Shown in pieces: positions 28,480-64,000 of a DNA stretch of 64,000 nt (its first letter is position 1; the number at the start of each line of letters is the position of its first letter). The notes under the pieces are model-generated. The model did not search any database. It worked only from the letters and a program-made list of their open reading frames with translations, and was not told the DNA's origin. Source of the stretch: Zhaonella formicivorans (lineage in GTDB: Bacteria; Bacillota; DUOV01; Zhaonellaceae); NCBI RefSeq assembly GCF_004353525.1, contig NZ_CP085524.1:1460142-1524141 (forward strand), given 5' to 3'. The position numbers and the translations under genes were made by a program.

Positions 28480-28562
28480 GTTAGTCGTTAGTTCAAATAT
28501 CCTACAAATATAAAAAGCAGTAATAGAATTCCTAAAACTGGAGACTGATGACCAATGACTGC
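28480..28562 (+). repeat. Heptad-repeat inverted element, site 1
   Basis: The left arm contains GTCGTTA repeated at 7-bp steps (about 28480-28494). The right arm CTGATGACCAATGAC (about 28545-28559) is a degenerate inverted copy. It fills the gap between the AOR and MoaD-like genes. Confidence 0.6.
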
Positions 28563-28563
28563 A

Positions 28564-28827
28564 TCAGCCTCCCGCCATCAGAGTAAAAAATTCCACCCGG
28601 TCACCATCCTGCAGGTAAGTGGTGGACCATTCTTCCCGTGATAATTTCCTGTTATTTAGGCTGATGGCTGCTATGACAGCTACGTCTTTAGAGCGAAACT
28701 GGGGATAATGCTCCTCCAGATGCCGCCACAAATCTTCCACTTTGGCCGGCGCATTTAAATTGATATCCAGCTGCAGCACACCAAGCAGCAATTGAAAGAA
28801 GCCGTAAAAACGCGCCTCTATGCGCAC
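28564..28827 (-). CDS. MoaD/ThiS-like sulfur carrier for pterin cofactor
   Basis: The 87-residue ubiquitin-like protein ends in LMAGG; the terminal GG is the site of activation and thiocarboxylate formation. Typical inner motifs are present: AAISLNNRKL and LQDGDRVEFFTL. It should donate sulfur for the dithiolene of molybdopterin or tungstopterin. The GTG start at 28827 follows GGGGGAGGG; the longer upstream frame (to 28902) reads implausible residues. Its position directly upstream of AOR is common, and a dedicated role in W-cofactor synthesis is plausible. Confidence 0.88.
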   Translation of the reverse strand: MRIEARFYGFFQLLLGVLQLDINLNAPAKVEDLWRHLEEHYPQFRSKDVAVIAAISLNNRKLSREEWSTTYLQDGDRVEFFTLMAGG

Positions 28828-28916
28828 CCAACCCTCCCCCCTTAAACTGAGATCTAAAATAGCGAAGCGGAAAATCCAGCCCCCTGTATTTGGGGCCGGC
28901 ACAGATTATAGTGACG

Positions 28917-31166
28917 TTATTTCCCCAGTGCTTGCAGTATTTTCTCGGGCTTAACCGGCAGATCCTTAAATTCTACGCCCAATGCGTTGCTGACCGCATT
29001 TACCACTGCCGGCGCCGAAGGCACCACGGAACACTCGCCGATGCTTTTAGCCCCGAACGGACCAGGGTCTTCCCCCTCTTCTACCAGAATAACCTTGGTT
29101 TGGGGCATTTCACTGGCAGTAAGCAGGTGGTATTTCTTCAAGGAATTGTTGATGGTCTTTCCGCCGGCATCAAATTCTAAACCTTCCGTCAAGGCGTAAC
29201 CGATGCCCATTTGGATGGCTCCTTCGATCTGTCCTTCAGTAGCCAAGGGGTTAATGGCTCTACCCACATCATGGGCTGCCACGTATCTCAGCACTTTCAC
29301 CCTGCCGGTTTCCGTATCCACTTCCACCTCCGCAAAATGGGCTCCGTAAGAAGCGGGTCCAGCAATGGAAGCATAAGTTTCCGCGCCGATAATTTCCCTC
29401 TGACTTACCTTTTGGGCATTGACAAGCACCTCACAAAGGGTTGCTTTCTGCTCCGGATTTTTTACCGAGTAGACAAAACCATCTTTTAAATCCAGCTCTT
29501 CCGCCGGGACCTGTAAAAGGAGGGAAGCTTCCCTTAAAATTTGTTCCTTCACGTTTTCCGCCACCTTCTGGGCAGCTTTGCCTGAAACAAAAACCCCCCT
29601 GCTGGCATAATCGCCCAAATTCCATGGCACAGCCTCCGTATCCGCTTCCACGCACTCGATGTTTTCGGGATCGATGCCCAAAATTTCGCCGATTATCTGG
29701 GTTTGGACGGTTACCGATCCGTTCCCCATGTCATGGGTACCAGTAAACAGGGTTGCTGTCCCATCCTCATTCATTTTCAGGATTAAAGCCGTTACATCCC
29801 TGTGAGCGCCGAAGCAGCCGTTTCCATGGGAACCTACGGCCATGCCAATGCCCCGCTTGAAACGCCCGTTGTCTTCGCTTAGTTTATAGCCCTCCCATTT
29901 AAAGGCAGCAGCCCCTTTCAACACGCAGTCAATCGGACGCGGGTTGCCGATGGGCTTGCCAAAACGCTGGTCAATGCCGTCGGGTTCTACCAGGTTTTTT
30001 AATTGCAGCTCAACCATGTCCATTTTTAAAGCTTTGGCAATTTTGTTCAGTTGCACCTGCTGGGCGAAAAAGGCCTGAGGCGAACCATAGCCTCGCATAG
30101 CGCCGGCAATGGGTGTATTGGTATAGACCGGAATCCCGGTAAAACGCAGATGCTTGGTCTTGTACACTTTAAATACTTTATGGCTCATGGCCGCTGTAAC
30201 ATTAAGGGCGCTGGTTGCATAAGCACCGGTGTTGATAATAACCTTGAAATCCTGGGCTACTATGGTCCCGTCTTTCTTGACGCCGGTCTTGAGGTAAACC
30301 ACCGCTCCGTGCCTGGTCCTGGTGGAGACCATGGATTCCCTGCGGTTTAACTCCAGCTTTACAGGGCGACCGGTCATTTTAGCAAGCAAAGCCACCACCG
30401 GTTCTATCGTGGCTTCCAGTTTGCCGCCGAAACCTCCGCCAATGGCAGGCCTGATAACCCTCACTTTGTTCATGGGCATTTCCAGGATTTTAGAAAGGAT
30501 AATCCTAAAAGCAAAGGTATTTTGGTTAGGGCTCCAGACAGTTAACTTGCCCCGCCGGTCATAATCTGCAATAGCCACGTGGGTCTCAATGGCGCCATGA
30601 TGGATAGCCGGCACAGTATATCTATCTTCAAAAATCAAATCTGCTTCAGCAAAACCTTCCTCCACATTGCCCGCTTCCGCCTTGATTTCAGCGACCTTAT
30701 TGCCGCCGGGATGAATTTGCGGTGCATCGGCCTGTAACGCTTCCTCCGGATCAAAAACGGCAGGCAGCTCTCCATACTCAACTTCAATTAACCGGATGGC
30801 TTTTTCTGCGGTTTCCAAATCCTCAGCCGCTACTGCCGCCACCCTGTCGCCTACAAAGCGCACCGTATCATCGAAAACATATTCCACTTCCGGAATTTTG
30901 TGCTCGTAAAAACGCATAGCGCTGTTGTAGGGAATACGCGGCGAATTTTTATAAGTAAGCACTGCCTTCACGCCAGGCAAAGCTTCCGCCTTGGAGGTGT
31001 CGATATGCTTGATTTTAGCATGGGCTAACGGGCTGAACAGCAGCTTAGCATACAGCATATGTGGTAATTTCATGTCCGCAGTATATTTCAACTGTCCGGT
31101 TACCTTCAAAGCTGCATCTCTGATGGGACGACCTGCACCTACATAAGTCAATTTTTCCTTACCCAT
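28917..31166 (-). CDS. Xanthine dehydrogenase-family molybdopterin-binding subunit
   Basis: The 749-residue large subunit starts GRPIRDAALKVTGQLKYTAD, the usual opening of this family. It has GGGFGGKLE (cofactor loop), AMRGYGSP (xanthine/aldehyde-oxidoreductase type, not the CoxL AYRCSFR loop) and GAKSIGECS with the catalytic glutamate near the end. It hydroxylates a heterocycle or aldehyde; the substrate is unknown. It overlaps the 2Fe-2S subunit gene by one base (TAATG), so a complex is expected. No FAD subunit gene is present, so electrons presumably leave through the iron-sulfur subunit to a separate partner. Confidence 0.93.
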   Translation of the reverse strand: MGKEKLTYVGAGRPIRDAALKVTGQLKYTADMKLPHMLYAKLLFSPLAHAKIKHIDTSKAEALPGVKAVLTYKNSPRIPYNSAMRFYEHKIPEVEYVFDDTVRFVGDRVAAVAAEDLETAEKAIRLIEVEYGELPAVFDPEEALQADAPQIHPGGNKVAEIKAEAGNVEEGFAEADLIFEDRYTVPAIHHGAIETHVAIADYDRRGKLTVWSPNQNTFAFRIILSKILEMPMNKVRVIRPAIGGGFGGKLEATIEPVVALLAKMTGRPVKLELNRRESMVSTRTRHGAVVYLKTGVKKDGTIVAQDFKVIINTGAYATSALNVTAAMSHKVFKVYKTKHLRFTGIPVYTNTPIAGAMRGYGSPQAFFAQQVQLNKIAKALKMDMVELQLKNLVEPDGIDQRFGKPIGNPRPIDCVLKGAAAFKWEGYKLSEDNGRFKRGIGMAVGSHGNGCFGAHRDVTALILKMNEDGTATLFTGTHDMGNGSVTVQTQIIGEILGIDPENIECVEADTEAVPWNLGDYASRGVFVSGKAAQKVAENVKEQILREASLLLQVPAEELDLKDGFVYSVKNPEQKATLCEVLVNAQKVSQREIIGAETYASIAGPASYGAHFAEVEVDTETGRVKVLRYVAAHDVGRAINPLATEGQIEGAIQMGIGYALTEGLEFDAGGKTINNSLKKYHLLTASEMPQTKVILVEEGEDPGPFGAKSIGECSVVPSAPAVVNAVSNALGVEFKDLPVKPEKILQALGK

Positions 31167-31639
31167 TATGCTTCACCTCTCATCCTGCGGGCTGCCAGTT
31201 CAATGGCATCCATGATTTTGATATAGCCTGTACAGCGGCAAAGATTGTTGTCCAGTGCTTCTGCAATTTCCTGCCTGGTGGGGTTGGGGTTTTTGTCCAG
31301 CAGCGCTTTGGCAGTAATAATCATGCCGGGAGTACAAAAACCGCACTGAACGGCACCTGCTTCCACAAAGGCCTCTTGAATAGGGTGAAGACTTGTCCCT
31401 TGGGCTATCCCTTCTATGGTAACGATTTCTTTCTCTTCAGCCTTGATGGCCAATACCGTACAGGAATTGACCGCCTCCCCGTCTATTAAAACTTTGCATG
31501 CGCCACAATCGCCGGTATTGCAGCCACACTTGCTTCCGGTCAGGTTAAGCACCTCTCTTATTACATAGAGCAGTGTCCAGTTTTTCTTAACTGCCACATC
31601 GTAAATCTTAGCGTTGATTTTAAGCTTTATTTGTTGCAT
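31166..31639 (-). CDS. 2Fe-2S subunit of molybdenum hydroxylase
   Basis: The 157-residue protein has a plant-ferredoxin-type cluster site (SKCGCNTGDCGACKV with a distal Cys in VNSC, about 39-61) and a C-terminal four-helix cluster site (CGFCTPGM and LCRCTGY, about 98-141). This two-cluster layout matches the small subunit of CoxS/XdhC type. It would pass electrons from the large subunit encoded immediately downstream. GGAGGGGCAAGG precedes ATG 31639. It is the first gene of the string 31639 to 26513. Confidence 0.95.
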   Translation of the reverse strand: MQQIKLKINAKIYDVAVKKNWTLLYVIREVLNLTGSKCGCNTGDCGACKVLIDGEAVNSCTVLAIKAEEKEIVTIEGIAQGTSLHPIQEAFVEAGAVQCGFCTPGMIITAKALLDKNPNPTRQEIAEALDNNLCRCTGYIKIMDAIELAARRMRGEA

Positions 31640-31819
31640 CCTTGCCCCTCCTTTGACCTTAACGCCTGCAAGCCTTGCAATAAAAAAATAGGAATACTGC
31701 GAGTAGAATTGCTACCTTAATTCTACCACAGATACTCCTACTTTTGTTGAAAATATGCAAAATTTGTCTTGAATTTTTAACAATGCTAAAAAAATTGTAA
31801 CGACAGATACATAATGCTC

Positions 31820-32164
31820 TTAATCGTACTTTAAAACGCACAAATCACCGGGTTCGGTGCCTGTAGCTTCAATGCTGCCGGCAGGCAATTCTGCAACGCA
31901 GTAAGCTTCTTTGACGACGGGACTCCTTTTAAAGCTTTTTAGCCCGGCAATGGTATACTTAACGCCCCCTGTTTTATCTAAAAACAATACATCGATGGGA
32001 AAGCGCATAAAACAAGTATGGATGGCATTGCATGGTTTAAGCAGCAGGCAGTAACCTTTGGCCAACTCCCTTTTTCCCATCAACCCCAGCAACCTCTTAT
32101 GAAAAGTATCAGCTATTATTACCCGGTCGGCTATGACAGCATTTTTAGAAATATTGAGCAGCAA
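31820..32164 (-). CDS. DUF192 family protein
   Basis: The 114-residue product matches the DUF192 fold: ADTFHKRLLGLMGKREL, then NAIHTCFMRFPIDVLFLDK and a closing ELPAGSIEATGTEPGD. These small beta-barrel proteins have no firmly known function. The start is TTG 32164 at 8 bp from GGGGGGAG, because the frame has a stop just upstream. It follows tadC by 3 bp and is probably transcribed with the Tad locus; whether it takes part in pilus assembly is not known. Confidence 0.85.
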   Translation of the reverse strand: MLLNISKNAVIADRVIIADTFHKRLLGLMGKRELAKGYCLLLKPCNAIHTCFMRFPIDVLFLDKTGGVKYTIAGLKSFKRSPVVKEAYCVAELPAGSIEATGTEPGDLCVLKYD

Positions 32165-32167
32165 GCA

Positions 32168-35456: not shown

Positions 35457-35536
35457 GGTTCTCACTCCTAGACGCCAATTATAAATCTATTAACGTTTAA
35501 CTTCCTTTGATTTACAATTCTCGATCAGGGTTGCTG

Positions 35537-35633
35537 GTTATTGGTTGTTAGTTGTTAGTTATTAGTTATAAAATAACCAAAAGCTTGGGCCAAAACTGTT
35601 AGCCAACAACCATCAACTAACAACTGACAACTG
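35537..35633 (+). repeat. Heptad-repeat inverted element, site 2
   Basis: Left arm (35537-35571): five 7-bp units of the form RGTTRTT. Right arm (35601-35633): inverted units of the same family, reading AGTTGTY on the minus strand. The arms can form a long hairpin. It fills the tadA-tadZ gap. Confidence 0.75.
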
Positions 35634-35635
35634 CT

Positions 35636-36838
35636 CTACAGGCTGAACATACTGGCCAAAAGTCCCGGCTTTTTATTTTGGGCAGCTGCTGTCTTTGCTT
35701 TCTTTACCACCATTCTGGCCAGCTGTTCGATGTTTTCCGATATTTTGGCAGTCGGGTTAGTTACCACAAAAGGCGTGCCCCGGTTTACCGCGGTAATCAC
35801 CACTTTATCGCTGGGAGGCAGCTGGCATAAGATTGGCAGTCCCAAGGTCCGTTCCACATCCTCCGCCCGCAAACCGTAATCTGAGCATGAGTTGTTTAAT
35901 ATAATGCGCACCTTCTCTTTAAGCCCCAGCCCCTCCAGCACTTCCAGGCACAGCTTGGCATTTTTGATTGCCGGTAAATCCATGGTCAGGACCAGGTGGA
36001 TCTGGCTTGCCAGGTCCAGAGCTGACAAAACGTTTTCGTCAAAGGCAGCGGGGGTATCTATTACCACGTACTCATAAGTTTTTTGCAGAGCTTTAATTAT
36101 TTGTTCCACATGCCGATTGTCAATTAAATCAGCATACTGGGGCCTGGCCGGCGCCGACAGCACGCTTAGGCCCGTAGCAGGGTGAGGCAAAACGTAGCTT
36201 TGTACCAAGTCGGCATCTATCAGTTCATTTTCCTGGACAAGTTGGGCCAACGTCTGCTTGGGAAAGATATTGAGCATGGCCGATACATCCCCGAACTGCA
36301 GGTCCAAATCCAGGAGGACAACTTTTTTCCCGCTGACCTGATGCAAACTGACCGCTAAATTGGTTGCAACCGTGGTCTTGCCTACGCCGCCTTTTGTTCC
36401 GAATACTACTACAGTCTGAGGCTGGCTCTTTGTCCCATGATGCTCGTCCGAGACGTTTTTCTTCCGGTATTCCAGCTGATAGATTTTTTTTACGCTGTTT
36501 AAAAGATCTTCGCTGGAAAAGGGCTTGCAAATATAATCCCTGGCGCCTGCAGTCATGGCCCTTTTTATGTACTCAAATTCGCCTTGCACAGTCATCATAA
36601 TGACGCTTACATCGGGATATTGGGTAGAGATTTGTTCTGTTGCGCTAAGGCCATCCAGCACCGGCATATTTATGTCCATCAGGATGATATGAGGTTTAAT
36701 TTTGTCTACCTTATTAAGGGCTTCTTCGCCGTTTTCCGCTTCACCGACTACTACTATTTCCTCATCCAATGCCAACAACCGGCGGACGTTATCCCTGGTT
36801 TCCTTGATATCGTCAACAATCATCACCTTGATTGGCAT
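35636..36838 (-). CDS. tadZ: TadZ/CpaE-like receiver-ParA ATPase
   Basis: The 400-residue protein joins a response-regulator receiver (about 1-120; VMIVDDIKETRD, LMDINMPVLDG with the phospho-acceptor Asp, K in YICKPF) to a MinD/ParA-type ATPase (about 140-385; deviant Walker A KGGVGKTTVATNLA, then LLDLDLQFGDVSAMLN). TadZ/CpaE proteins place the pilus apparatus at a site in the cell. Here the receiver keeps its aspartate, so it may respond to a kinase, whereas many CpaE proteins have lost it. It follows cpaB by 4 bp. Confidence 0.93.
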   Translation of the reverse strand: MPIKVMIVDDIKETRDNVRRLLALDEEIVVVGEAENGEEALNKVDKIKPHIILMDINMPVLDGLSATEQISTQYPDVSVIMMTVQGEFEYIKRAMTAGARDYICKPFSSEDLLNSVKKIYQLEYRKKNVSDEHHGTKSQPQTVVVFGTKGGVGKTTVATNLAVSLHQVSGKKVVLLDLDLQFGDVSAMLNIFPKQTLAQLVQENELIDADLVQSYVLPHPATGLSVLSAPARPQYADLIDNRHVEQIIKALQKTYEYVVIDTPAAFDENVLSALDLASQIHLVLTMDLPAIKNAKLCLEVLEGLGLKEKVRIILNNSCSDYGLRAEDVERTLGLPILCQLPPSDKVVITAVNRGTPFVVTNPTAKISENIEQLARMVVKKAKTAAAQNKKPGLLASMFSL

Positions 36839-37547: not shown

Positions 37548-37578
37548 AAATTTTCTCCTCCGATTTACATAGCAAACT

Positions 37579-37657
37579 GGTTGATAGTTGTTGGTTGTTA
37601 GTTGTAGCAACTAACAACCAATGGCTAGAGCTTACGCTGACGGCCGATAGCTAACAA
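37579..37657 (+). repeat. Heptad-repeat inverted element, site 3
   Basis: Units GGTTGAT, AGTTGTT and GGTTGTT step at 7 bp from 37579. The inverted arm CAACTAACAACC begins near 37607. The rest up to 37657 has degenerate units (GATAGCTAACAACTA). It lies between tadG and cpaB. Confidence 0.7.
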
Positions 37658-44773: not shown

Positions 44774-45060
44774 TTAGCTGTCAGCTATCAGCCTTCAGCC
44801 AACAGCTTACAGCTATCAGCTAGCTATCAGATACCCTTGCCCTTGCCAAAGGAACTTCTTAGTCCTAATCTCTCAGTCCCTAGTCCCGAGAATCGGCTTA
44901 AAGCCGCGTCCTTAGTCCTTGGTTGCTACTCCTTCACTGCGGCTTACGCCGAGTCATTACTTATTACGATAACCAACGGGTAATTGCTGACAGCTGATGG
45001 CTGACAGCTGATAGCTGATAGCTGATAGCTGATAGCTAACATGCATACTACATGCATGTC
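44774..45060 (+). repeat. Heptad-repeat inverted element, site 4 (largest)
   Basis: Left arm (44774-44840) has 7-bp units like GCTATCA and GCCTTCA. Right arm (44984-45036) has seven or more units of the type TGATAGC, then TAACATGCAT. The arms are reverse complements and could pair over about 50 bases. Between them lies TAGTCCY-type sequence and a small GC hairpin (CGGCTTAAAGCCG). No gene is seen in this gap of over 300 bp. Confidence 0.8.
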
Positions 45061-45276: not shown

Positions 45277-45289
45277 GGATACGAAGCTC

Positions 45290-45361
45290 GAGGTTCGAAG
45301 CACGAGGTTCGACAGTAAATCCAACCTCTAACCTCTAACCTCTCACCTCTGGCCTCTCAAT
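45290..45361 (+). repeat. Heptad-repeat inverted element, site 5, inside the tRNA cluster
   Basis: Left arm: GAGGTTC/GAAGCAC units at 7-bp steps (45290-45312). Right arm: AACCTCT repeated three times, then CACCTCT and GGCCTCT (45324-45358). GAGGTT and AACCTC are reverse complements. It separates tRNA-Glu from the CAT tRNA. Confidence 0.75.
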
Positions 45362-50653: not shown

Positions 50654-50667
50654 AAACGCCTCCCCTA

Positions 50668-50740
50668 AATGCATATTAGATGCATGTTAGCCGCCAGCTG
50701 TCAGCCATCAGCCAATAGTTATAAGCCAATAGCATAATTT
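50668..50740 (+). repeat. Heptad-repeat element, site 6 (single arm)
   Basis: ATGCAT occurs twice (50668-50690), then GTTAGC and 7-bp units GCTGTCA, GCCATCA, GCCAATA follow up to about 50730. No second arm is seen. It lies upstream of dgt. Confidence 0.65.
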
Positions 50741-51256: not shown

Positions 51257-53917
51257 TTAAGCAGTAGTAGCGACAGCGGACTGTTCTTGCTGCTTTTCTC
51301 TGACAGCAGCCTGAGCAGCAGCTAGTCTAGCGATAGGCACCCGGAAAGGTGAGCAGCTTACGTAGCTTAAGCCAACCCGGTGACAGAATTCCACAGAGGA
51401 GGGGTCACCGCCGTGTTCGCCGCAAATTCCCAGCTTAATGTCAGGCCGCACAGCTTTTCCTTTTTGCACTGCCATATCCACCAGCATACCTACGCCGGTC
51501 TGATCCAGTTTAGCAAAAGGATCAAATTCATAGATCTTTCTCTCATAGTAATCGTCCAGGAATTTGCCGGCATCGTCCCTGGAGAAACCGAAAGTAAGCT
51601 GGGTCAAGTCATTAGTGCCAAAGGAGAAGAACTGGGCTTCCTTGGCAATTTCATCGGCAACCAAGCAGGCTCTGGGCACTTCGATCATGGTGCCGACCAG
51701 GTATTCCAGCTCAACACCTGATTCTTTGATTATCTCATCTGCAACCTTCACGATAATATCTCTGACAAAATTATACTCCCGGACTTCGCCAACCAGCGGA
51801 ATCATAATTTCGGGGACCACATTTAAACCTTTTTCTTTCTTAACCTGGATCGCCGCTTCAATAATAGCCCTGGTTTGCATTTCGGCAATTTCAGGATAGG
51901 TGACTACCAAGCGGCAGCCTCTGTGGCCCATCATGGGGTTAAATTCTTTCAGGGATTCAACTTTGGCTTTCAAATCCTCCGCGCTTATGCCCATGTCTTT
52001 GGCCAATTCGGCTATAGCCTCTTCTTCATGGGGCAGGAATTCATGGAGCGGGGGATCTAACAGCCTGATGGTTACGGGCCTTTCTCCCATTTCTTCGAAA
52101 ATGCCTACAAAGTCGCTTTTTTGCATGGGCAACAGTTCATCTAATGCAGCTCTTCTTTCTGTTTCTCCCTCCGCCAGGATCATTTTCCGCACTTTTGGAA
52201 TACGTCCTTCTTCAAAGAACATGTGCTCTGTACGGGTTAAGCCAATTCCTTCTGCGCCGAAGTTGACGGCGTTTCTGGCATCAGTGGGTGTGTCGGCATT
52301 GGCCCGGACTTTTAGCCTTCTGATATTATCTGCCCAGGACATGAATTTAGCAAAATCGCCGGTAATTTCAGGTTCAACTGTGGGCAGATCTTCACCATAG
52401 ACGTTTCCTGTTGAACCGTCTAAAGAAATATAATCTCCTTCTTTAAAGATTTTACCGCCAACTGTAAAATATTTTTCTTCTTCGTTGATCTTGATCTCGC
52501 CACAGCCCGCTACACAGCAGGTTCCCATACCCCTTGCCACTACTGCAGCGTGGGAGGTCATTCCACCCCTGGCCGTCAGGATACCTTTGGCGGCTGCCAT
52601 GCCCTCGATATCTTCAGGCGAAGTTTCTAGCCGGACCAGGATTACTCTTTCTCCTCTTTGGCCTGCCTCTTTGGCATCTTCAGCAGTGAAATAAACTTTA
52701 CCAGCCGCTGCTCCGGGCGAGGCCGGGAGTCCCTTGGCAATGGGTTTTGCTGCCTTCAGTGCATTGGCATCAAAGGTTGGGTGCAGCAGTTGATCAAGCT
52801 GCTTGGGATCCACTTTCATCACTGCTTCTTCTTCTGTAATCATGCCTTCGTTTACCAGGTCCACTGCGATTTTGAGTGCGGCCTGGGCTGTTCTCTTGCC
52901 GTTACGGGTTTGTAAGAAGTACAGTTTTCTATTTTCAATGGTGAATTCCATATCCTGCATGTCTTTGTAATGATTCTCCAGCTTCTGGGCAATTTCCAGG
53001 AACTGCTGGTAGACTTCAGGCATATCCTGTTCCAGGGTACTGATAGGCTTTGGTGTCCTGATGCCTGCCACCACGTCTTCGCCCTGGGCGTTGATGAGGT
53101 ATTCGCCGAAGATGGCTTTTTCTCCGGTAGCTGGGTTGCGTGTAAAAGCCACACCTGTGCCGGAAGTTTCTCCCATGTTGCCGAAGACCATCATCTGAAC
53201 GTTAACCGCTGTCCCCCAACTGCTGGGAATGTCGTTCATCCGTCGATAAACTATGGCCCTCGGGTTATCCCAGGAACGGAATACAGCCTTGACTGCTTCC
53301 ATCAGCTGTTCCTTCGGGTCTTGGGGAAATTCTGCACCTTTTTCCTTCCTGTAAAGATCTTTAAATCTGGCAATAACTTCTTTCAGATCTTCTGCATTGA
53401 GATCCGTGTCAACTTTGGCGCCTTTCGCTTCTTTAACCTCATCCAGGATTCTTTCAAATTTTGCTTTGGAAATATCCATTACTACGTCTGAAAACATCTG
53501 AATAAACCTGCGATAAGAATCGTAAGCAAATCTAGGGTTATCGGTAGCAGCGGCCAAGCCTTCTACAGCCACGTCATTTAAACCCAAGTTAAGAATGGTA
53601 TCCATCATGCCTGGCATTGATGCTCTTGCCCCTGAACGGACTGATACCAGCAAGGGGTTTTGTGGATCACCAAATTTTTTCCCCGCGATGCCTTCTAGTT
53701 TTGCCAAAGCTACTTCAATTTGTTTTACTACCTCGGGGGAAATTGTCTTATTATTGGCGTAGTAATCATTGCAGGCCTCCGTTGTTACGGTAAAGCCCTG
53801 AGGGATTGGCAGCCCTAACCTTGTCATCTCAGCCAGGTTTGCGCCCTTTCCACCCAGCAAATTGCGCATGGATGCATCGCCTTCGCTAAACATGTACACA
53901 TACTTTTTACTTTCCAT
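51257..53917 (-). CDS. ppdK: Pyruvate, phosphate dikinase
   Basis: This 886-residue enzyme interconverts pyruvate + ATP + Pi and PEP + AMP + PPi. Domains: N-terminal ATP-grasp (LLGGKGANLAEMTRLGLPIP), the swinging-His domain with GGMTSHAAVVARGMG (catalytic His and regulatory Thr two residues before it), and a C-terminal PEP/pyruvate barrel (LTRTEHMFFE, GTNDLTQLTFGFSRDDAG). The Thr is the target of the PDRP encoded upstream. GGGAGGAGCATT precedes ATG 53917. An IS110 element now lies between PDRP and this gene, so it must have its own promoter or use one from the element. Confidence 0.97.
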   Translation of the reverse strand: MESKKYVYMFSEGDASMRNLLGGKGANLAEMTRLGLPIPQGFTVTTEACNDYYANNKTISPEVVKQIEVALAKLEGIAGKKFGDPQNPLLVSVRSGARASMPGMMDTILNLGLNDVAVEGLAAATDNPRFAYDSYRRFIQMFSDVVMDISKAKFERILDEVKEAKGAKVDTDLNAEDLKEVIARFKDLYRKEKGAEFPQDPKEQLMEAVKAVFRSWDNPRAIVYRRMNDIPSSWGTAVNVQMMVFGNMGETSGTGVAFTRNPATGEKAIFGEYLINAQGEDVVAGIRTPKPISTLEQDMPEVYQQFLEIAQKLENHYKDMQDMEFTIENRKLYFLQTRNGKRTAQAALKIAVDLVNEGMITEEEAVMKVDPKQLDQLLHPTFDANALKAAKPIAKGLPASPGAAAGKVYFTAEDAKEAGQRGERVILVRLETSPEDIEGMAAAKGILTARGGMTSHAAVVARGMGTCCVAGCGEIKINEEEKYFTVGGKIFKEGDYISLDGSTGNVYGEDLPTVEPEITGDFAKFMSWADNIRRLKVRANADTPTDARNAVNFGAEGIGLTRTEHMFFEEGRIPKVRKMILAEGETERRAALDELLPMQKSDFVGIFEEMGERPVTIRLLDPPLHEFLPHEEEAIAELAKDMGISAEDLKAKVESLKEFNPMMGHRGCRLVVTYPEIAEMQTRAIIEAAIQVKKEKGLNVVPEIMIPLVGEVREYNFVRDIIVKVADEIIKESGVELEYLVGTMIEVPRACLVADEIAKEAQFFSFGTNDLTQLTFGFSRDDAGKFLDDYYERKIYEFDPFAKLDQTGVGMLVDMAVQKGKAVRPDIKLGICGEHGGDPSSVEFCHRVGLSYVSCSPFRVPIARLAAAQAAVREKQQEQSAVATTA

Positions 53918-53989
53918 AATGCTCCTCCCTCTATAATCTTTAATTTTCTTTGAAAATCTCGCTTAATCTTAGATTTTCATTTGTACAAA

Positions 53990-54421
53990 GTCAATCCTCT
54001 TGGACAATATGCCTATTTTTGTATATATCTGGATTAACAAGTGTATACCGACAGAATATGCGTCTTTTAAACGTATTTCGGCCATGTAATCCACTTGTTC
54101 TCCGGTGGCAAACCTCCCATGTCTCACAGGGTCTGTGCCCCTAAATTCCTTCGTACTGCCTGCCCATGAGGTGGATGTCAGCCTTGCTCCTTTGCTGGGT
54201 CAAATGCCCTTATGGATAAATTTCAACCTGACTATTCCGGCTCGCTTTGTCAATGAACGTAATCTTTAATTAAGCAAGGTTTTTTTACATTTCCAGCACC
54301 GCTTGATTGCTTGTTACATTGCAGGAGTTTGACTGTCAAGGGGCCGCGATAGCGGCGACGCAGTCTTTACCCTTGACTGGCAAACGGATGAAATGTAACA
54401 TTGTCAGTTGCGGTGCGCTTT
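53990..54421 (-). ncRNA. Candidate IS110-type guide (bridge/seek) RNA region
   Basis: About 430 non-coding bases follow the IS110 transposase on the minus strand. Local hairpins are visible (CACAG-ACC-CTGTG near 54124-54136; AGTCAAGGG/CCCTTGACA with a GCCGC/GCGGC inner stem near 54333-54385). IS110/IS1111 elements encode a structured RNA in a long non-coding end that guides donor and target choice; in the IS1111 group it is downstream of the gene, as here. The role is inferred from element type; exact ends and loops are not determined. Confidence 0.4.
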
Positions 54422-55705
54422 TTAGGCGGCTTCCTGTAATTCTTGCCTTCTTATATCACTCATCATTTTTTGTGGGTCATAAGCTACGCCTTTTCTCAGT
54501 AAGGTGTAAAATATCCTTATGAGCTTACAGCATAAGAGTACTAGCGACTGTTTCTTTTTGAGCGGGTTCTGTGGCCTTGTTGTGTAGTACTGGTGTAGTT
54601 CTTTAAATTCGTTGTTCTTAGCCACTATGGGCATAATCCCTTGAAATAACAACGATCTTAGCCTTTTTCGCCCTCGTTTGCTAATAGTTGTTTGGCCCTT
54701 ATGCTTTCCTGAGCTATTTTCTTTCAGGCTTAGTCCCGCCAGCTTCTGTACCTGCTTTGGATGTTCAAACCTTGTAATATCCCCTACTTCAGCTATAAAC
54801 CCTGCTGCTGCTATGAGGCCTACTCCCTTGATTTTTAGCATTTCTTCAATACCGGGAATCTGCATGGCTAATTCTTCTATTAGAGCCATTGTCCTTTCAT
54901 ATTGCCTCTGCAGCATTTCATATTCTTCTAGTAGTGTGGCAAGTTCATTTTGAGCTGCTCTTAATCCTTCTCGTACTCCTACTGATATCTTTGCTGCCTC
55001 AACTAGTTGGCTGGCTCGTCTAACTCCAACAGCTCTGCTGATTTCTTTTCTCCAGCTGGCAACTATGCCTTCGACGCCTTTTTCAAGTACTTTATGCCGT
55101 GTTGGAAACTCTTTTAGCGTTACTATTGCTGCTTTGCCTTCCCAATCCCCAAAGACTCTGTTGAACTCCGGGAAATATATGCTTATCCAGCGTTTAACTC
55201 TGTTTCGGATGCTGTTAAGCTGCTTCACTAATCTTAAGCGGGTTTCCATTGCATTTCGTAAATCGCTGTAAATTCCTTCGGGAATGTACGGTTCCATGTA
55301 TCGACCGTCTTTTACCAGCATGGCAATGGTTTTTGGGTCCTTTCGGTCATTTTTGGTCGGATTATTATCATCCAATTCTTTGCTTCGCTTTACGTGAAAC
55401 GGATTCACTAGTACTATTTTCAGCTGGTGATCCTTAAGATGCTGGGCAAAGGTAAACCAATAGTGTCCCGTAGGCTCCATCCCAACCATTACCTGCTGCT
55501 TCTGCTGTTGTTTTGCCACACTTTTTACCCACTCAGAAAATGTCTTGAAGCCGTTGTTGTCATTATTGAATTTTAGTAGCTTAGCTAGTTCTACGCCTCT
55601 GTAATCGAAAGCTCTGGCGTAATTTGTCTCGCTAGCTACATCTACACCAATGATTAAAGTCTTTTCTGTTATTTGCAAAATTCTTGAGTTCTGGTTATAC
55701 TTCAT
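54422..55705 (-). CDS. IS110-family transposase (DEDD type)
   Basis: The 427-residue enzyme has an N-terminal RuvC-like DEDD domain (IIGVDVASETNYA, VGMEPTGHYW, NDRKDPKTIAML) and a C-terminal Transposase_20 domain (IPGIEEMLKIKGVGLIAAAG, FIAEVGDITRFEHPKQVQKLAGLS with the conserved Ser, KRGRKRLRSLLFQG). It is complete and apparently functional. GAGGAGGTACTCAAT precedes ATG 55705, and this ribosome site can pair with an inverted repeat upstream. Confidence 0.96.
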   Translation of the reverse strand: MKYNQNSRILQITEKTLIIGVDVASETNYARAFDYRGVELAKLLKFNNDNNGFKTFSEWVKSVAKQQQKQQVMVGMEPTGHYWFTFAQHLKDHQLKIVLVNPFHVKRSKELDDNNPTKNDRKDPKTIAMLVKDGRYMEPYIPEGIYSDLRNAMETRLRLVKQLNSIRNRVKRWISIYFPEFNRVFGDWEGKAAIVTLKEFPTRHKVLEKGVEGIVASWRKEISRAVGVRRASQLVEAAKISVGVREGLRAAQNELATLLEEYEMLQRQYERTMALIEELAMQIPGIEEMLKIKGVGLIAAAGFIAEVGDITRFEHPKQVQKLAGLSLKENSSGKHKGQTTISKRGRKRLRSLLFQGIMPIVAKNNEFKELHQYYTTRPQNPLKKKQSLVLLCCKLIRIFYTLLRKGVAYDPQKMMSDIRRQELQEAA

Positions 55706-55709
55706 ATTG

Positions 55710-55782
55710 AGTACCTCCTCTGTTATTTAAGGGTCGCTAGTTAATCGACACCTCGACACCTCGTATGTTAACAGGAGGTACT
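55710..55782 (-). promoter_or_regulatory. Hairpin that can mask the transposase ribosome site
   Basis: AGTACCTCCT-CTGTTA (55710-55725) pairs with TAACAGGAGGTACT (55769-55782) across about 43 bases. On the minus strand the 3' arm contains the transposase Shine-Dalgarno GAGGAGGT. RNA entering from PDRP would fold and hide it, whereas initiation inside the loop would leave it free. On plus the stem is followed by TCTTTTTT. Confidence 0.6.
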
Positions 55783-55796
55783 TCTTTTTTCAAAGC

Positions 55797-56624
55797 TCAT
55801 TTTAATTCATTACAGGAATGCTCCTTATAGTAAATATCCATAACCTTAGCTGCGGTTTCTTCCACAGCACGGTTGGTTACATCGATGACATGGCACCCTA
55901 ACTTCTCCATAATATCTTTTGCATATTCCAATTCTTTATGAATTCTTTCCATATTGGCATAATCGGCATTTTCCTTTAAACCTAAACTTTTCAGGCGCTC
56001 CGTCCTAATTTGATAAAGCAGTTCCGGATTGATAGTGAGCCCGAATATTTTTCCCGGGGGAAGCTTAAATAGCTCCTCAGGCGGTGCTACCTCCGGCACT
56101 AAAGGTATATTGGCCGCCCTAATTCTCTTGTGGGCTAAATACATGCTGAGCGGTGTTTTCGATGTTCTGGATACTCCAATAATAACCAGGTCAGCATAAA
56201 TGATGCCTCTAGAGTCTTTTCCGTCATCATATTTTACGGCAAAATCAACAGCATCTACCTTGCGGAAATACTGTTCATCCAATTTGCGGATTAACCCCGG
56301 TTCCATTTTCGGGGGCGAATTGCTGATTTTTGCTATAGTTGAGATCATTGGGCCTAAAATATCAACTGTGGGGATGTTCCTTTCAGCAGCCAGTTCTTTT
56401 AAATGCTCTGCCAATTCTCTTACTACCAGCGTATAGGCAATAACACTGTTAAAGCCGCTGGCCTCCTCAATTATCTCAGCTAAATGCTCCTTATCAGCCA
56501 CATAAGGAAAACGCCTGATTTGCATTTCGCCTTCATTGAACTGGCTGATGGCAGCTCGAGCTACTAGTTCCCCGGTCTCTCCCAAGGCATCGGAAATAAT
56601 GTAGATCACAGGTTTGTCGGATAT
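55797..56624 (-). CDS. Pyruvate phosphate dikinase regulatory protein (PDRP), probable AUA start
   Basis: A bifunctional kinase/phosphorylase that inactivates PPDK by ADP-dependent phosphorylation of a Thr next to its catalytic His, and reverses it. Motifs: [14 protein letters not shown] at the start, P-loop [15 protein letters not shown], and [13 protein letters not shown]. The first standard start, GTG 56609, lies more than 20 bp after the ribosome site GGGAGGGG. ATA 56624 lies 6 bp after it and adds SDKP, matching family N-termini (KPVIYVISD). I place the start there. Next to the CcpN-like regulator, as in Bacillus (ccpN-yqfL). Confidence 0.9.
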
Positions 56625-56639: not shown

Positions 56640-56785
56640 TCGGTGTATGCATGTGCTAAAGCTGTCAGCTATCAGTTATCAGCCAACAGCTGATGTACTG
56701 CTGCATTATTTAGCTCTTAATAACTTTTTAGAAGCTCTTCTCTAATAGCTGAAAGCTGATGGCTAACATGCATGAGCCATGCATG
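56640..56785 (+). repeat. Heptad-repeat inverted element, site 7
   Basis: Left arm: TGCATG, then units GCTGTCA, GCTATCA, GTTATCA, GCCAACA (about 56662-56692). Right arm: TAATAGC, TGAAAGC, TGATGGC, then TAACATGCAT and a second ATGCAT (56743-56782). It fills the gap between PDRP and the CcpN-like gene. Confidence 0.78.
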
Positions 56786-57437: not shown

Positions 57438-57500
57438 GTTAAGAGTTAAGAGTTAAGAGTTAAGAGTTAAAAGTTAAGAGTTTTGAGTTTTGAGTTGGGG
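57438..57500 (+). repeat. Heptad-repeat element, site 8 (direct only)
   Basis: GTTAAGA is repeated exactly four times, then degenerates to GTTAAAA, GTTAAGA and GAGTTTT units, all at 7-bp steps. No inverted arm is visible. It lies between glyS and the CcpN-like gene. Confidence 0.85.
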
Positions 57501-59742: not shown

Positions 59743-59744
59743 AA

Positions 59745-60725: not shown

Positions 60726-60746
60726 TTACATCCCTCCGATAAAATT

Positions 60747-60843
60747 AGTTTTGAGTTTTGAGTGTTGAGTGTTGAGTTGCATATTATAGCAAGTGCCAAA
60801 GTCTTTTAACTTAAAACTCAACACTCTTAACTCTTCACTCAAA
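60747..60843 (+). repeat. Heptad-repeat inverted element, site 9
   Basis: Left arm (60747-60781): AGTTTTG twice, AGTGTTG twice, all at 7-bp steps. Right arm (about 60810-60843): AAAACTC, AACACTC, TTAACTC, TTCACTC, the inverted family. It lies between the T-box terminator and glyQ, so it is part of the leader transcript. Confidence 0.82.
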
Positions 60844-60844
60844 A

Positions 60845-61050
60845 CAAAAACCCTCGTCCTATAGCCTCTGCAGCTACAGGGACGAGAGTCTTTCCCGCGG
60901 TTCCACCCTGATTGCCCCCCGTATTGGGGGAGCCACTCTTTGAGCATAAACTCAGGACGCCCTTCCTTTGCCGATTTTACCGGTTTCCACCTGCCACCGG
61001 CTCTCTGTGAAAAATCGAGCAAACTACTCCTTCCCTCATCGTTTCCGTAT
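60845..61050 (-). promoter_or_regulatory. Glycine T-box riboswitch with terminator
   Basis: On minus the conserved T-box sequence GGGTGGAACCGCGG lies at 60908-60895, followed by the terminator CTCGTCCC...GGACGAG plus TTTTTGTTTT (60887-60845). Stem I with GAGCC/GGCTC-type elements occupies the 5' part. Uncharged tRNA-Gly would pair with the specifier and with TGGA to favour the antiterminator, allowing glyQS synthesis. The 5' end is approximate. Glycine is inferred from the genes controlled. Confidence 0.92.
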
Positions 61051-61125
61051 GAATTTATTTCCAAAATAGCAAAACTAATGCCACTTGTCAAGGGTCTAAA
61101 TCTGCAGCAACGGTTAGCTCATCGC

Positions 61126-61539
61126 CTAGAGCTCGATGTCCTCTTCTTCAGTTTCACCATTGGCTTTTTCTATCTCCAGCCTGTATTTATTCATCATGGC
61201 CGCCACAGTCCCAATACCGGCTATGACTGTCAAAGGAGTGCTTGCTAAAACACCCAGAAGGCCTATGGCTCCCACTGAAGCCGGAATCTCTAAAACCGTC
61301 TCATCGCCCTTTTTAACTTTCACCTTGGTAACGTTGCCCTGCTGAATTATTTCCTTTACACGGGTTACCAATTTACCGCCTTCTTGCTGCAACTTTTCTT
61401 CCCAATTGGCTTTCTTTTGTTCCTGAGTGATAAGAGCCTGAATTAAATCACCGCCGGCAGCATCTAAAGCATCTTTTGCCTCTTTGTAACTCAAACCTAA
61501 ACGTTCCCGCAGTATATCGATTTTCTCTAATTCCGTCAT
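61126..61539 (-). CDS. DUF4342 protein with UBA-like domain
   Basis: The 137-residue protein has an N-terminal UBA/TS-N-like helical domain (ILRERLGLSYKEAKDALDAA, GGDLIQALI). A DUF4342-type region follows: VKEIIQQGNVTKVKVKKGDE, VLEIPASVGAIGLLGVLAS, and one membrane helix. It is probably anchored at the membrane inner face. AAAGGGGAAGAG precedes ATG 61539. The function is unknown; the gene stands between recO and the glyQ T-box. Confidence 0.85.
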   Translation of the reverse strand: MTELEKIDILRERLGLSYKEAKDALDAAGGDLIQALITQEQKKANWEEKLQQEGGKLVTRVKEIIQQGNVTKVKVKKGDETVLEIPASVGAIGLLGVLASTPLTVIAGIGTVAAMMNKYRLEIEKANGETEEEDIEL

Positions 61540-61723
61540 AAACTCTTCCCCTTTCGGTTAGCTATTAACAGACGAACTGTCTTGTAAAGAAACTTTATGA
61601 TCTAGCATATCCTGTTGTGCCAATTTTATGCATTTTACCATTAGAACAAAGAGACAAGCAGCGGAAAAAGGTGCTGTCTTTTCCACGCTTCCGCTCTTGC
61701 CTCGCGACCTGCGTCCTTTGGTT

Positions 61724-62527
61724 TTAACCGGCATCATCAGTTGGAGTCAGCCGCTTTAGCCCTTTCACGAAATCCATGGTTTTAACCCTACGTTCCAAAA
61801 TATTTTCAATGTAACAATGGATAATTGCTTCCAACTGCGCCCTTTCTTGCGCTCCCAGCCTTAGTCTGTTTAAATTACGCAGGTTGATTTTAGTTAAGTA
61901 TTTCCAGATGGCTATAGTCCCACGCCCGATAAGGGGCGCCTGCAAATCGTTTGACTTGCAGCCGGAACATAAAATACCGCCCAAGCCAGGGGAAAATCTG
62001 AGCTCTCCTTCATGCAATGCATTATTACAAAAAACACAGTTTTCCAGTTGGGGCTGATAGCCTGTGAGACTCAGCAAGCGGACCTCAAACTGTCTGGCAA
62101 TCAGTTCTATGTCCCCGCTACCGGGTGAATCTGAAGCAGAAAGCGCTCTCGAATGGGCAAGTAAATGGAAAGTAGTTAAAAGCAGCACGTAGATTTCTTC
62201 GTTTCTTTCCCGCTCCGGCAGCATCAAATCGGTCAATTCCGCCAGATAACCAGCATAGGCAAGGAGGTCTAAATCATTTCTCAGGCCCGGAAAGCCCTCC
62301 AGCAAGTCACACTGGGTAACGGTATCCAGATTTTTGCCTTTGTACAACATGATACTGCTGCGGGAAAAAGGTTGTACGGATCCCCGGTTTTTGCTCTTGA
62401 TTTTACGCACACCTCTGGCAACAGCTTCCACTTTGCCATGCTCCCTGGTAAACAATGTCAAAATTTTATCGGCTTCTCCAAAATTACGGGCTTTAAGTAT
62501 TATAGCCTCTACCCTATAGAGAGACAT
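61724..62527 (-). CDS. recO: DNA repair protein RecO
   Basis: The 267-residue protein has an N-terminal OB fold (YRVEAIILKARNFGEADKIL, FTREHGKVEAVARGVRKIKS), a helical middle and a zinc site (CVFCN and CSGC, about 150-180). It anneals ssDNA coated with SSB and loads RecA with RecR. ATG 62527 follows AAAGGAGAAGC; a longer frame is rejected because it overlaps yqzL. It is downstream of era and yqzL, the usual Firmicutes order. Confidence 0.95.
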   Translation of the reverse strand: MSLYRVEAIILKARNFGEADKILTLFTREHGKVEAVARGVRKIKSKNRGSVQPFSRSSIMLYKGKNLDTVTQCDLLEGFPGLRNDLDLLAYAGYLAELTDLMLPERERNEEIYVLLLTTFHLLAHSRALSASDSPGSGDIELIARQFEVRLLSLTGYQPQLENCVFCNNALHEGELRFSPGLGGILCSGCKSNDLQAPLIGRGTIAIWKYLTKINLRNLNRLRLGAQERAQLEAIIHCYIENILERRVKTMDFVKGLKRLTPTDDAG

Positions 62528-62540
62528 GCTTCTCCTTTCC

Positions 62541-62669
62541 TCACAAAATCTCAGCAGTAGGTTGATCCGACTGCTCACTTTCAGCAGCGAGCAAGTCTTT
62601 GTAATATAAATAGGCATCAATGTAACCGGTAACACTAAAAATTTTCCACATTACATTACTATCCTTCAT
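62541..62669 (-). CDS. yqzL: YqzL family small protein
   Basis: The 42-residue product reads MWKIFSVTGYIDAYLYYKDL in its first part, the conserved pattern of YqzL (W-K-x-F-x-x-T-G-x-I-x-x-Y-L). GAAAGGATTTGAACCC precedes ATG 62669. It stops 13 bp before recO, as in Bacillus (era-yqzL-recO). The function is unknown. Confidence 0.88.
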   Translation of the reverse strand: MKDSNVMWKIFSVTGYIDAYLYYKDLLAAESEQSDQPTAEIL

Positions 62670-62801
62670 GGGTTCAAATCCTTTCTGCTTATCGATTTTG
62701 TCAGTATTAGATTGAGCTTATTCGGGAACCCGTATCCGTTACATACGCTGGAAAATAATTAATGACTTACAATCCTTATCCTGTTGGCCGGTTATACTAA
62801 A

Positions 62802-62828
62802 ATAGCCTTCAGCTACCCTGAAGGCTAT
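62802..62828 (-). terminator. Terminator-like hairpin after era
   Basis: ATAGCCTTCAG (62802-62812) and CTGAAGGCTAT (62818-62828) pair perfectly (11 bp), followed on minus by TTTAGT. The short T tract suggests partial termination before yqzL-recO. Confidence 0.65.
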
Positions 62829-62882
62829 ACACTCTTTACTTTTAATCTAACAATATTTTATCTCTATGTCAACTACAACAGG

Positions 62883-63782
62883 TTATTCCTGGGGCGTATA
62901 ACCAAAATTGCGCAAATCTGCTTCCCTTCTGCGCCAGTCCGGCCTGACCTTGACCCAAAGTTCCAAATAGGTTTTGCTGCCCAACAAAGCCTCGATGTCC
63001 TCCCTGGCCAGCTGCCCTATACTTTTTAGCATTTGGCCCTTTTTACCGATTATTATTCCCTTTTGGGAATCCCTTTCCACATAGATTACTGCCCCCACGT
63101 AAATGCCCCCGGTGCCCCGCTGCTCAATAGTCTCAATCTGTACTGCCACGGAATGAGGCACTTCCTCTCTGGTCAGGTGTAAAACTTTTTCCCTGATGAG
63201 TTCGGCAATCACCAGCCGTTCAGGTTGATCCGTCACCATCTCCGGCGGATAATATTGGGGCCCTTCCGGCAAATATTGCGCTAAAACTTGCAGCAGGCGC
63301 TCCACATTTTCTCCGCTGGCTGCGGAAACCGGTACAATTGCGGCAAAGTCAAAACGATGGCTGTACTCGGCTATAAGGGCCAAAAGTTTGTTTTTATCCA
63401 ATAAATCAATCTTGTTCAAAGCCAGAATAACCGGAGTGTCAACCTGGGATAAAGCTTTTAAAACATACTCTTCTCCCGCCCCGTATTCAGCGGTAACATC
63501 AACCACATATAAGACAGCATCCACTTCCCGCAAGGTGTGGAGAGCAGTCTCTACCATGTACTCCCCCAGTTTGTGCTTGGGTTTATGGATGCCGGGGGTA
63601 TCGAGAAAGACAATCTGTACATTTTCCGCTGTGTATACACCCCGAATCTTATTGCGGGTGGTTTGGGGCTTATCAGACATTATGGCCACTTTTTGCCCCA
63701 ACACCCGGTTTAAGAGTGTTGACTTGCCCACATTGGGGCGACCGATTATGGCCACGAACCCAGAGCGAAAATTTTCGGTCAC
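62883..63782 (-). CDS. era: GTPase Era
   Basis: The 299-residue GTPase has G1 GRPNVGKSTLLNR, G2 KPQTTRNKI, G3 DTPGIHKPKH, G4 NKID and a C-terminal KH domain (VERDSQKGIIIGKKGQMLKS). It helps 16S rRNA maturation and 30S assembly. The GTG start at 63782 follows GGGAGGAGGC; a longer frame to 63824 reads across that site. It heads the era-yqzL-recO group. Confidence 0.97.
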   Translation of the reverse strand: MTENFRSGFVAIIGRPNVGKSTLLNRVLGQKVAIMSDKPQTTRNKIRGVYTAENVQIVFLDTPGIHKPKHKLGEYMVETALHTLREVDAVLYVVDVTAEYGAGEEYVLKALSQVDTPVILALNKIDLLDKNKLLALIAEYSHRFDFAAIVPVSAASGENVERLLQVLAQYLPEGPQYYPPEMVTDQPERLVIAELIREKVLHLTREEVPHSVAVQIETIEQRGTGGIYVGAVIYVERDSQKGIIIGKKGQMLKSIGQLAREDIEALLGSKTYLELWVKVRPDWRRREADLRNFGYTPQE

Positions 63783-63835
63783 TTCTATGCCTCCTCCCTT
63801 ATCGGCCTTTGGCCGAGTCCTCAATCCTCAGCAGG

Positions 63836-64000
63836 CTAACGCCGTCGTTAGTCATTAGCTATCAGCCATCAGCTAGCAGCTGGCAGCTTTCAGCCTTCAG
63901 CTATCACCTGGCGGCCATAATTGCTGATGACTAGTAACTAATGGTTCCACAAGTCTACGGAAAAATACATGCAACCAAGGACTAACGACTAAGGACTAAG
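63836..64000 (+). repeat. Heptad-repeat inverted element, site 10 (to window end)
   Basis: It begins GTCGTTAGTCATTAG and continues with units GCTATCA, GCCATCA, GCTAGCA, GCTGGCA, GCCTTCA at 7-bp steps (63850-63907). The end (63975-64000) has AACCAAGGACTAACGACTAA, the inverted form of the beginning. No gene is seen in these bases. Confidence 0.72.

What the first reader, a model, noticed from the sequence alone, without database searches (positions are those of the whole stretch)
28480..64000. Ten intergenic sites with tandem repeats of exactly 7 bp but different heptamers, mostly as inverted arms
Seen directly: arrays with a strict 7-bp step occur at 28480, 35537, 37579, 44774, 45290, 50690, 56662, 57438, 60747 and 63850. 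The heptamer differs by site (AGTTGTT, TGATAGC, AACCTCT, TTAAGAG, AGTGTTG, GTCGTTA). In at least eight sites a second array of the reverse-complement family lies 10-150 bp away, so the RNA or single strand could fold into long hairpins. All are intergenic, in the 28-64 kb core part; I saw none in 1-28 kb. Constant period with changing sequence suggests a copying process that works on length (slippage, a reverse-transcribing or terminal-type activity, or a replicating hairpin) rather than spread of one sequence. Cyanobacterial STRR heptamers are a distant parallel.
Basis: partly seen in the sequence, partly recalled or inferred. Interest (0 to 1): 0.78.

Follow-up and report, generated by a model that had tools for sequence, protein, structure and literature searches.

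The report
Seven-base repeat hairpins between genes
This bacterium's gaps between genes hold hairpin-forming arrays built from seven-base units; the seven-base step is strict, most units share a three-base core, and many arrays begin at the end of a gene, so they look like a little-described form of repeat that multiplies inside bacterial genomes.

Summary
In 464 kb sampled from this genome, 28 period-7 arrays were found against 0-1 at each other period from 2 to 13 and none in shuffled DNA. They are genome-wide, not limited to 28-64 kb. Seven of the ten listed sites carry inverted arms (six strong hairpins, one marginal); 57438 is single-armed, and 28480 and 50690 are weak.

The heptamers are not unrelated. 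Most share an in-register core, AGY+4 variable bases, with the middle variable base changing most. Neighbouring arms always point toward each other (14 of 14). Sites 44774 and 63850 belong to a modular composite element with about 40 loci genome-wide, whose copies differ by 7, 14 and 21 bp. At gene ends the arrays start within a few bases of the stop codon, and a TAG stop is usually in register with the AGY units (15 of 20, six genomes). Relatives lack the arrays or carry a different heptamer hairpin at the same place.

Best reading: REP/STRR-like selfish intergenic hairpin repeats that spread by copying and change by 7-nt slippage, enzyme unknown. HutP and a RAYT transposase were tested and not supported. 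New variant of a known kind.

The parts
28477..28492 (+). fragment GTCGTTAGTCGTTAG (2.3 units); resembles the end of the composite element (GCGTCGTTAGTCGTTAGT)
35529..35633 (.). hairpin: (RGTTNTT)n arm, loop, (AACAACT)n arm; the second arm ends about 2 nt from the TAG stop of the gene 35636-36838(-)
   Evidence: (z -3.1)
37578..37650 (.). hairpin with a 13-bp perfect stem GGTTGTTAGTTG/CAACTAACAACC
   Evidence: (z -4.3)
44774..45060 (-). copy of the composite element (reverse): AGCTATC arms, palindrome CGGCTTTAAGCCG, CTAAGGA and GGGACTA units; flank ATGCATGTTAGC; downstream of the tRNA cluster
   Evidence: (L172)
45282..45359 (.). hairpin of AGAGGTT/AACCTCT units between tRNA-Glu and tRNA-Met; a relative has another 7-mer hairpin at the same place
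   Evidence: (z -4.9)
50665..50730 (+). degenerate AGC(NNTC) arm with flank ATGCATGTTAGC, upstream of dgt
   Evidence: no significant hairpin
56650..56775 (.). hairpin of AGCTATC/GCTGATA units with flank CATGCATGTTAGC; absent from two relatives
   Evidence: z -3.3
57438..57496 (+). single arm (GTTAAGA)n then (GTTTTGA)n directly upstream of the ccpN ribosome-binding site; absent from relatives
60747..60860 (.). hairpin of AGTTTTG/AGTGTTG units between the T-box terminator and glyQ; G001 has another array-bearing insert at the same point, G002 none
   Evidence: z -4.4
60875..61048 (-). T-box leader upstream of glyQ (landmark)
63840..64000 (+). copy of the composite element, continuing past the window end: GGCTAACGCC, GTCGTTAGTCATT, AGC(NNTC)n, ATACATGCAACCAAGGACTAACGACTAAGGACT
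   Evidence: L173/L168; z -4.5

Best explanation
The sites are members and remnants of a class of selfish intergenic hairpin repeats. The unit is a heptamer, usually AGY followed by four variable bases; two arrays in opposite orientation with their AGY strands pointing inward form one hairpin. Shown: strict period, AGY core, inward polarity, composite copies dispersed over the genome, 7-bp copy-number steps between copies, absence or replacement in relatives, start at gene ends with TAG stops in register. Inferred: arrays gain and lose units by strand slippage in 7-nt steps; composite units move to new gaps by transposition-like or recombinational copying using an enzyme not identified; the AGY core persists because it is needed for propagation (as a slippage anchor or a recognition site), not because each copy serves its neighbouring gene; the preferred landing or nucleation point is the end of a gene, often TAG. 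The transcribed hairpins may then act as ordinary 3'-end or spacer RNA hairpins.
For: Period 7 only. Composite family: 57 matches at about 40 loci with shared non-heptamer interior and palindromes. Indels between copies: 145 of 7 bp against 40 and 15 of 6 and 8; 41 of 14 against 12 and 3 of 13 and 15; 13 of 21 against 4 of 20 and none of 22. Core: adjacent units differ at AGYNNNN positions .03 .02 .06 .30 .58 .24 .13; a test that does not choose AGY gives 6 mismatches in the quietest 3-base window against 25.7 expected, minimum 15 of 2000. Among 91 distinct heptamers AGT is the most enriched triplet, 2.3x. Polarity 14 of 14 inward. The palindrome module covaries: 12 double-change cells against 4.5 shuffled, 0/500. 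Arms of one locus resemble each other more than other loci's arms, p 0.022. Relatives: empty at ccpN-PpsR and glyS-ccpN in both, and at glyQ in G002. Stop-codon start: AGY-oriented arrays within 12 nt 10:0, 12:3, 4:1, 4:0; TAG in register 15 of 20; the genes tested are full length.
Against: No mobilising enzyme found: the only Y1 transposase hit is one IS200-like N-terminus joined to an integrase, with no arrays within 1.5 kb. No fixed element end or target duplication was established. Arrays inside a 98-99% identical segmental duplication show the same matched units in both copies, so turnover is not fast. The AGY core is not universal: filamentous cyanobacterium ESFC-1 shows more control-pattern than AGY matches, and the Selenomonadaceae locus L089 has GGGAAAA-type arrays. 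Inward polarity is mixed in G001 and absent in G289. Site 45290 has no dispersed copy in the sequence examined.
Confidence: 0.55

Rival explanations
1. Plain replication slippage: each array arose independently from local sequence, 7 nt being favoured by the polymerase, and neither core nor arms have meaning.
For: Heptamers are the commonest long simple repeats in many bacterial genomes and a polymerase-footprint explanation was proposed (Mrazek 2007, as cited in PMC4679880 and PMC4692102). 7-bp indel steps. Different heptamers at orthologous sites.
Against: Composite copies with a shared non-repeat interior are dispersed; the core is conserved at three positions only; fixed inward polarity; TAG-in-register start.
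Confidence: 0.15
2. RNA regulatory sites: a protein binds the YAG-N4-YAG motif in transcripts and controls hairpin formation, as HutP does with NAG triplets spaced by four bases.
For: The unit fits NAG-N4 (HutP motif recalled from memory, not tested here). HutP is present in this genome. Hairpins are significant and the T-box to glyQ position is transcribed.
Against: HutP shows no association: 12 of 19 array-rich genomes have it against 196 of 300 overall; seven array-rich genomes lack it and G002 has it without arrays. Neighbouring genes share no obvious function. The arrays are lineage-specific at essential genes.
Confidence: 0.12
3. Miniature elements mobilised by a transposase acting on hairpin single strands (REPIN/RAYT type) or on inverted repeats (MITE type).
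For: Dispersed, intergenic, palindromic modules plus inverted arms; similar layout to REP dimers (PMC3116915, PMC3733652).
Against: No RAYT gene flanked by the repeats; no fixed ends or target duplication found.
Confidence: 0.13
4. Translation stop cassettes: 7 is 1 mod 3, so a stop codon in each unit gives stops in all frames, and arrays are kept as guards at gene ends.
For: 61 of 85 distinct heptamers hold a stop on either strand against 47.6 shuffled; arrays start at gene ends.
Against: Once the AGY core is held fixed the excess is small (52 against 44, maximum 53). Does not explain dispersal or the AGY core.
Confidence: 0.05

Closest known systems
Cyanobacterial short tandemly repeated repetitive (STRR) heptamers
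   Same: Degenerate 7-bp intergenic arrays; CCCCAGT (recalled from memory) is the AGTCCCC unit seen here, in another rotation. Calothrix PCC 7103 shows the AGY pattern 342 against 65 control.
   Different: Here in a Bacillota genome, as inward-pointing pairs inside composite elements with other modules.
TAACTGA direct repeats of Beggiatoaceae, some cyanobacteria and Bacteroidetes (PMC4679880)
   Same: Intergenic heptamers; the reverse complement is a rotation of AGTTATC, which fits AGYNNNN; strain differences mostly in 7-nt steps.
   Different: One dominant heptamer, mostly upstream of start codons and proposed as translational sites; here many heptamers, often starting at stop codons.
GGGAATC / (GGGANTN)n repeats of Xanthomonas and GGGGA(C/T)T of Nostoc (PMC4692102)
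   Same: Heterogeneous heptamers with some positions fixed and others free; occasional inverted pairs; length varies between species.
   Different: G-rich, studied as G-quadruplexes; the units here are mostly not G-tracts.
Geobacter metallireducens tandem heptanucleotide elements and paired sites (PMC2700814)
   Same: Multicopy elements of four to five heptamers, and paired arrays on opposite strands at variable distance.
   Different: Presented as predicted regulator sites; no AGY core, 7-bp indels or stop-codon register reported in the passages read.
REP / BIME / REPIN elements and CGTC- or GTAG-tagged palindromes (PMC3116915, PMC3733652)
   Same: Dispersed extragenic palindromes in opposite-orientation pairs, mainly downstream of genes.
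   Different: No RAYT found, and the arms are heptamer arrays rather than single tagged palindromes.

Membership tests
Heptameric simple sequence repeats (STRR/LSSR kind) | tandem units of exactly 7 bp, intergenic, above chance | tested here: met
Heptameric simple sequence repeats (STRR/LSSR kind) | copy number varies in 7-bp steps | tested here: met
   indel peaks at 7, 14, 21 between dispersed copies; not tested between strains
REPIN with RAYT | single-copy REP-associated Y1 transposase flanked by the repeats | tested here: not met
   one PF01797 hit, IS200-like, joined to an integrase, no arrays in its 3.3 kb locus
REPIN with RAYT | two inverted palindromic units forming one dispersed hairpin | tested here: met
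REP tagged by GTAG or CGTC | stem of set length (CGTC class 8-9 bp) with an unpaired tetranucleotide tag | tested here: inconclusive
   palindromes often lie next to CGTC (CGGCTTAAAGCCG-CGTC), but the stems are 5-6 bp with 3-nt loops (definition from PMC3733652)
MITE (inverted-repeat miniature transposon) | fixed terminal inverted repeats and target-site duplication | tested here: inconclusive
   arms are inverted but of variable length, ends differ between copies, and no duplication was established
HutP-type RNA antitermination sites | occurrence tied to a HutP protein | tested here: not met
   no association over 300 genomes
HutP-type RNA antitermination sites | protein binds NAG-N4-NAG RNA | not testable with these tools
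   motif recalled from memory; no binding data

The most novel reading that the evidence does not exclude
A single, phylum-crossing kind of self-propagating element whose chemistry works in 7-nt steps anchored on an AGY core and which nucleates or inserts at TAG stop codons; the known heptamer repeats of cyanobacteria, Beggiatoaceae and others would be partial views of it, and an undescribed enzyme or replication event would make it.
Probability: 0.2. Interest if true: 0.88.

Novelty: new variant of a known kind. Interest (0 to 1): 0.6.

Why it matters
Why heptamers dominate long simple repeats in bacteria has stayed open since it was noticed. These data add rules that a mechanism must satisfy: a three-base core kept while the middle of the unit changes freely, arms that point inward, composite copies that differ by 7-bp steps, and a start in register with TAG stop codons, seen in unrelated lineages. 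Together they turn a vague 'slippage' explanation into something testable in one culturable strain, and they suggest that several separately named repeat families may share an origin.

Tried and rejected
HutP as binding partner and driver: no association with array-rich genomes. RAYT/REPIN mobilisation: no suitable gene. Known RNA families: only T-box, RNase P and tRNAs in the window at Rfam gathering thresholds. Stop-cassette function: small excess once AGY is fixed. Gene truncation as the cause of stop-adjacent arrays: PaaK, MetK, ThrS, YtvI and LepA match their family models to within about 1-6 residues of the stop. Recent copy-number change in a segmental duplication: none seen. Genus, order and class searches gave only 1-3 genomes. 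Stretches of G059 drawn blindly held no arrays. The paper on very small mobile repeats in cyanobacteria (Elhai 2008) is not held. The DnaG primase start-site idea (YAG on the primer strand) was considered and left as speculation, because GAG/AAG units are common in G001 and G161.
Full report
Setting. The window is G000:C1:1460142-1524141 of a 3.31 Mb single-contig genome. Its family, order and class each hold three genomes here, one per genus. The nearest glyQ relatives are Clostridia and Peptococcaceae, so this is a Bacillota lineage with few sequenced members. The 28-64 kb part holds core genes: tad pilus, degS/degU, rpoD, dnaG, dgt, ppdK, PpsR, ccpN, glyS/glyQ, recO, era. Genes were taken as long open reading frames, so intergenic borders are approximate.

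Observation. With one scoring rule applied to every period, period 7 gave 28 arrays (26 intergenic); all other periods from 2 to 13 gave 0 or 1, and dinucleotide shuffles gave none. A stricter rule gave 17 against none at periods 2-6 and 8-13. The ten listed places are real to different degrees. 28480 is 2.3 units; 50690 is degenerate; 57438 is a single arm. Hairpins with z of -3.1 or lower are found at 35520, 37570, 45280, 56650, 60735 and 63845; 44770 is marginal at -2.35. Arrays occur across the genome, so 28-64 kb is a dense stretch and not a special core.

Grammar. Cut in the AGY register, 183 units in 41 arrays differ between neighbours at rates .03.02.06.30.58.24.13 over the seven positions. 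Because that register was chosen by AGY, I repeated the test without choosing a motif: the quietest three neighbouring positions hold 6 of 170 mismatches, against 25.7 expected and never below 15 in 2000 randomisations. Position 5 is also the most variable in G001 (another genus of the family), G090 (another family) and a Selenomonadaceae MAG, while in G161 position 6 is. Among 91 distinct consensus heptamers collected without regard to AGY, AGT is enriched 2.3-fold and AGC 1.6-fold over letter shuffles. Families switch within one array without losing register, for example AGTCATT to AGCTATC at 63850 and AGTCATC to AGTTAAG in G001. The AGY rule is not absolute: AACCTCT in this window, GGGAAAA-type arrays in L089 and cyanobacterium ESFC-1 (180 AGY against 412 control) depart from it.

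Arms. Of 14 adjacent array pairs with assigned orientation, all 14 are inward-pointing (AGY on the plus strand first, its complement second). G161 has 4 of 4 and G090 3 against 0, while G001 is mixed (9 inward, 1 outward, 22 same-direction) and G289 shows none (4 against 5). Arms of the same locus resemble each other more than arms of other loci (5.28 against 4.81 of 7, p 0.022).

Dispersal. A self-comparison showed that several arrays share a non-repeat interior. One such copy matches 57 places, about 40 loci, across the genome, including window 44875-45019 (reverse) and 63840 onward. Aligning 28 copies gives a modular order: AGTCNCC units, a short palindrome, GTCGTTA units, AGC-NNTC units, a centre (TTAGCCGTTGGCTTTTTCCGCAAAAGCCATACATGCAA), CTAAGGA/CTAACGA units, a second palindrome (CGGCTTTTAGCCG and variants), GGGGACT units. 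Gaps between copies peak at 7, 14 and 21 bp. The second palindrome changes on both sides together more often than shuffles allow (12 cells against 4.5, 0 of 500); this can mean selection for pairing or correction by template switching, and relatedness of the copies inflates it.

Orthologous sites. In two relatives with the same gene order, the ccpN-PpsR and glyS-ccpN gaps have no arrays. At glyQ, G002 has none, whereas G001 carries an insert with different heptamers at the same point, right after the T-box terminator run TTTTTGTTTT. Between tRNA-Met and tRNA-Glu, G002 has a hairpin (z -5.3) whose arms I read as 7-base blocks of other sequence (AGTCAGA TGTCTGA AATCGGA); the array scan itself did not flag it. 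So geometry can outlast sequence, or the same spots are hit repeatedly.

Gene ends. Read in the direction of transcription, arrays that begin within 12 nt of the upstream stop codon are AGY-oriented: 10:0 in G000, 12:3 in G001, 4:1 in G090, 4:0 in G161. Over six genomes TAG is the stop in 20 of 35 such cases against about 29% of all reading frames, and in 15 of those 20 the AG of TAG is in register with the AGY units, where 1 in 7 is expected. The genes are complete: PaaK, MetK, ThrS, YtvI and LepA match their models to within about 1-6 residues of the stop. This is shown but unexplained; insertion at TAG, nucleation from TAG, or replacement of the original stop by the first unit are all possible. 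Short ancestral gaps explain closeness to the stop but not the register. The set is small and reading frames were called simply.

Distribution. In 300 genomes of the phylum the five-unit AGY pattern is patchy: 544 matches in G161, 465 in G000, 431 in G090, 321 in G289 and none in most, including G002 of the same family. It is also well above its control in a Selenomonadaceae MAG (216 against 1), a Nitrospiria MAG (81 against 4) and Calothrix PCC 7103 (342 against 65). Expansion therefore happened repeatedly.

Mechanism. Best supported: selfish intergenic hairpin repeats that change by 7-nt slippage and spread as composite copies; the enzyme is unknown. HutP was the most specific partner I could think of, since its RNA motif (from memory) is NAG spaced by four bases, but its presence does not track the arrays. 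The only Y1 transposase is not a RAYT.

Known work. Heptamers as the commonest long bacterial simple repeats, and a polymerase-footprint idea, go back to Mrazek 2007 (as cited in PMC4679880 and PMC4692102). STRRs, TAACTGA repeats, Xanthomonas GGGAATC repeats and Geobacter heptanucleotide elements (PMC2700814) are the same kind of thing. I did not find the AGY core, inward polarity, 7-bp differences between dispersed composites or TAG register described in the papers read; the library is partial, and the key cyanobacterial paper (Elhai 2008) was not held.

Noticed in passing
window 53915-55826: IS110-family element between PpsR and ppdK, 99.6% identical to L003:5017-6926; in G001 and G002 those two genes lie about 8 bp apart, so this is a recent insertion.
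   Followed up: partly
L012:1319-2600 and 6147-6712; L005:10185-13315: CRISPR-like arrays; the L012 repeat is GTTTCAATTCCTCATAGGTAGGCTATAAAC.
   Followed up: no
L012:16472, L020:312, L010:5145, L008:5024, L017:17674: Another dispersed family of about 140 bp with ends CCCGCATGTATTAT / ATAATACATGCGGGC (inverted), unrelated to the heptamer arrays.
   Followed up: no
L011:6681, L019:9936, L010:19059, L002:14048: A further dispersed intergenic family of about 230 bp (TTGTGTCCGCTGCTCCGGGATGACTTCGCC...).
   Followed up: no
L182:976-1839: Reading frame that starts as an IS200-like TnpA and continues as a phage-type integrase C-terminus; apparently an IS200 piece joined to an integrase gene.
   Followed up: partly
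window 45060, 50669-50690, 56765-56780: The motif ATGCATGTTAGC, often doubled as ATGCATG, borders several AGC-type arrays and may mark an element end.
   Followed up: partly
L183:13912-14776: Cluster of seven arrays within 900 bp, lying between the two copies of a 97-99% identical segmental duplication.
   Followed up: no
L089:799-868 and 7864-7943: Selenomonadaceae MAG with GGGAAAA-type and AGTTAGG-type heptamer hairpins beside gene ends (the GGGAAAA array overlaps a TAA stop): similar geometry, other core.
   Followed up: partly
window 25309-25660: RNase P RNA gene (class A) on the minus strand, in the part of the window without arrays.
   Followed up: no
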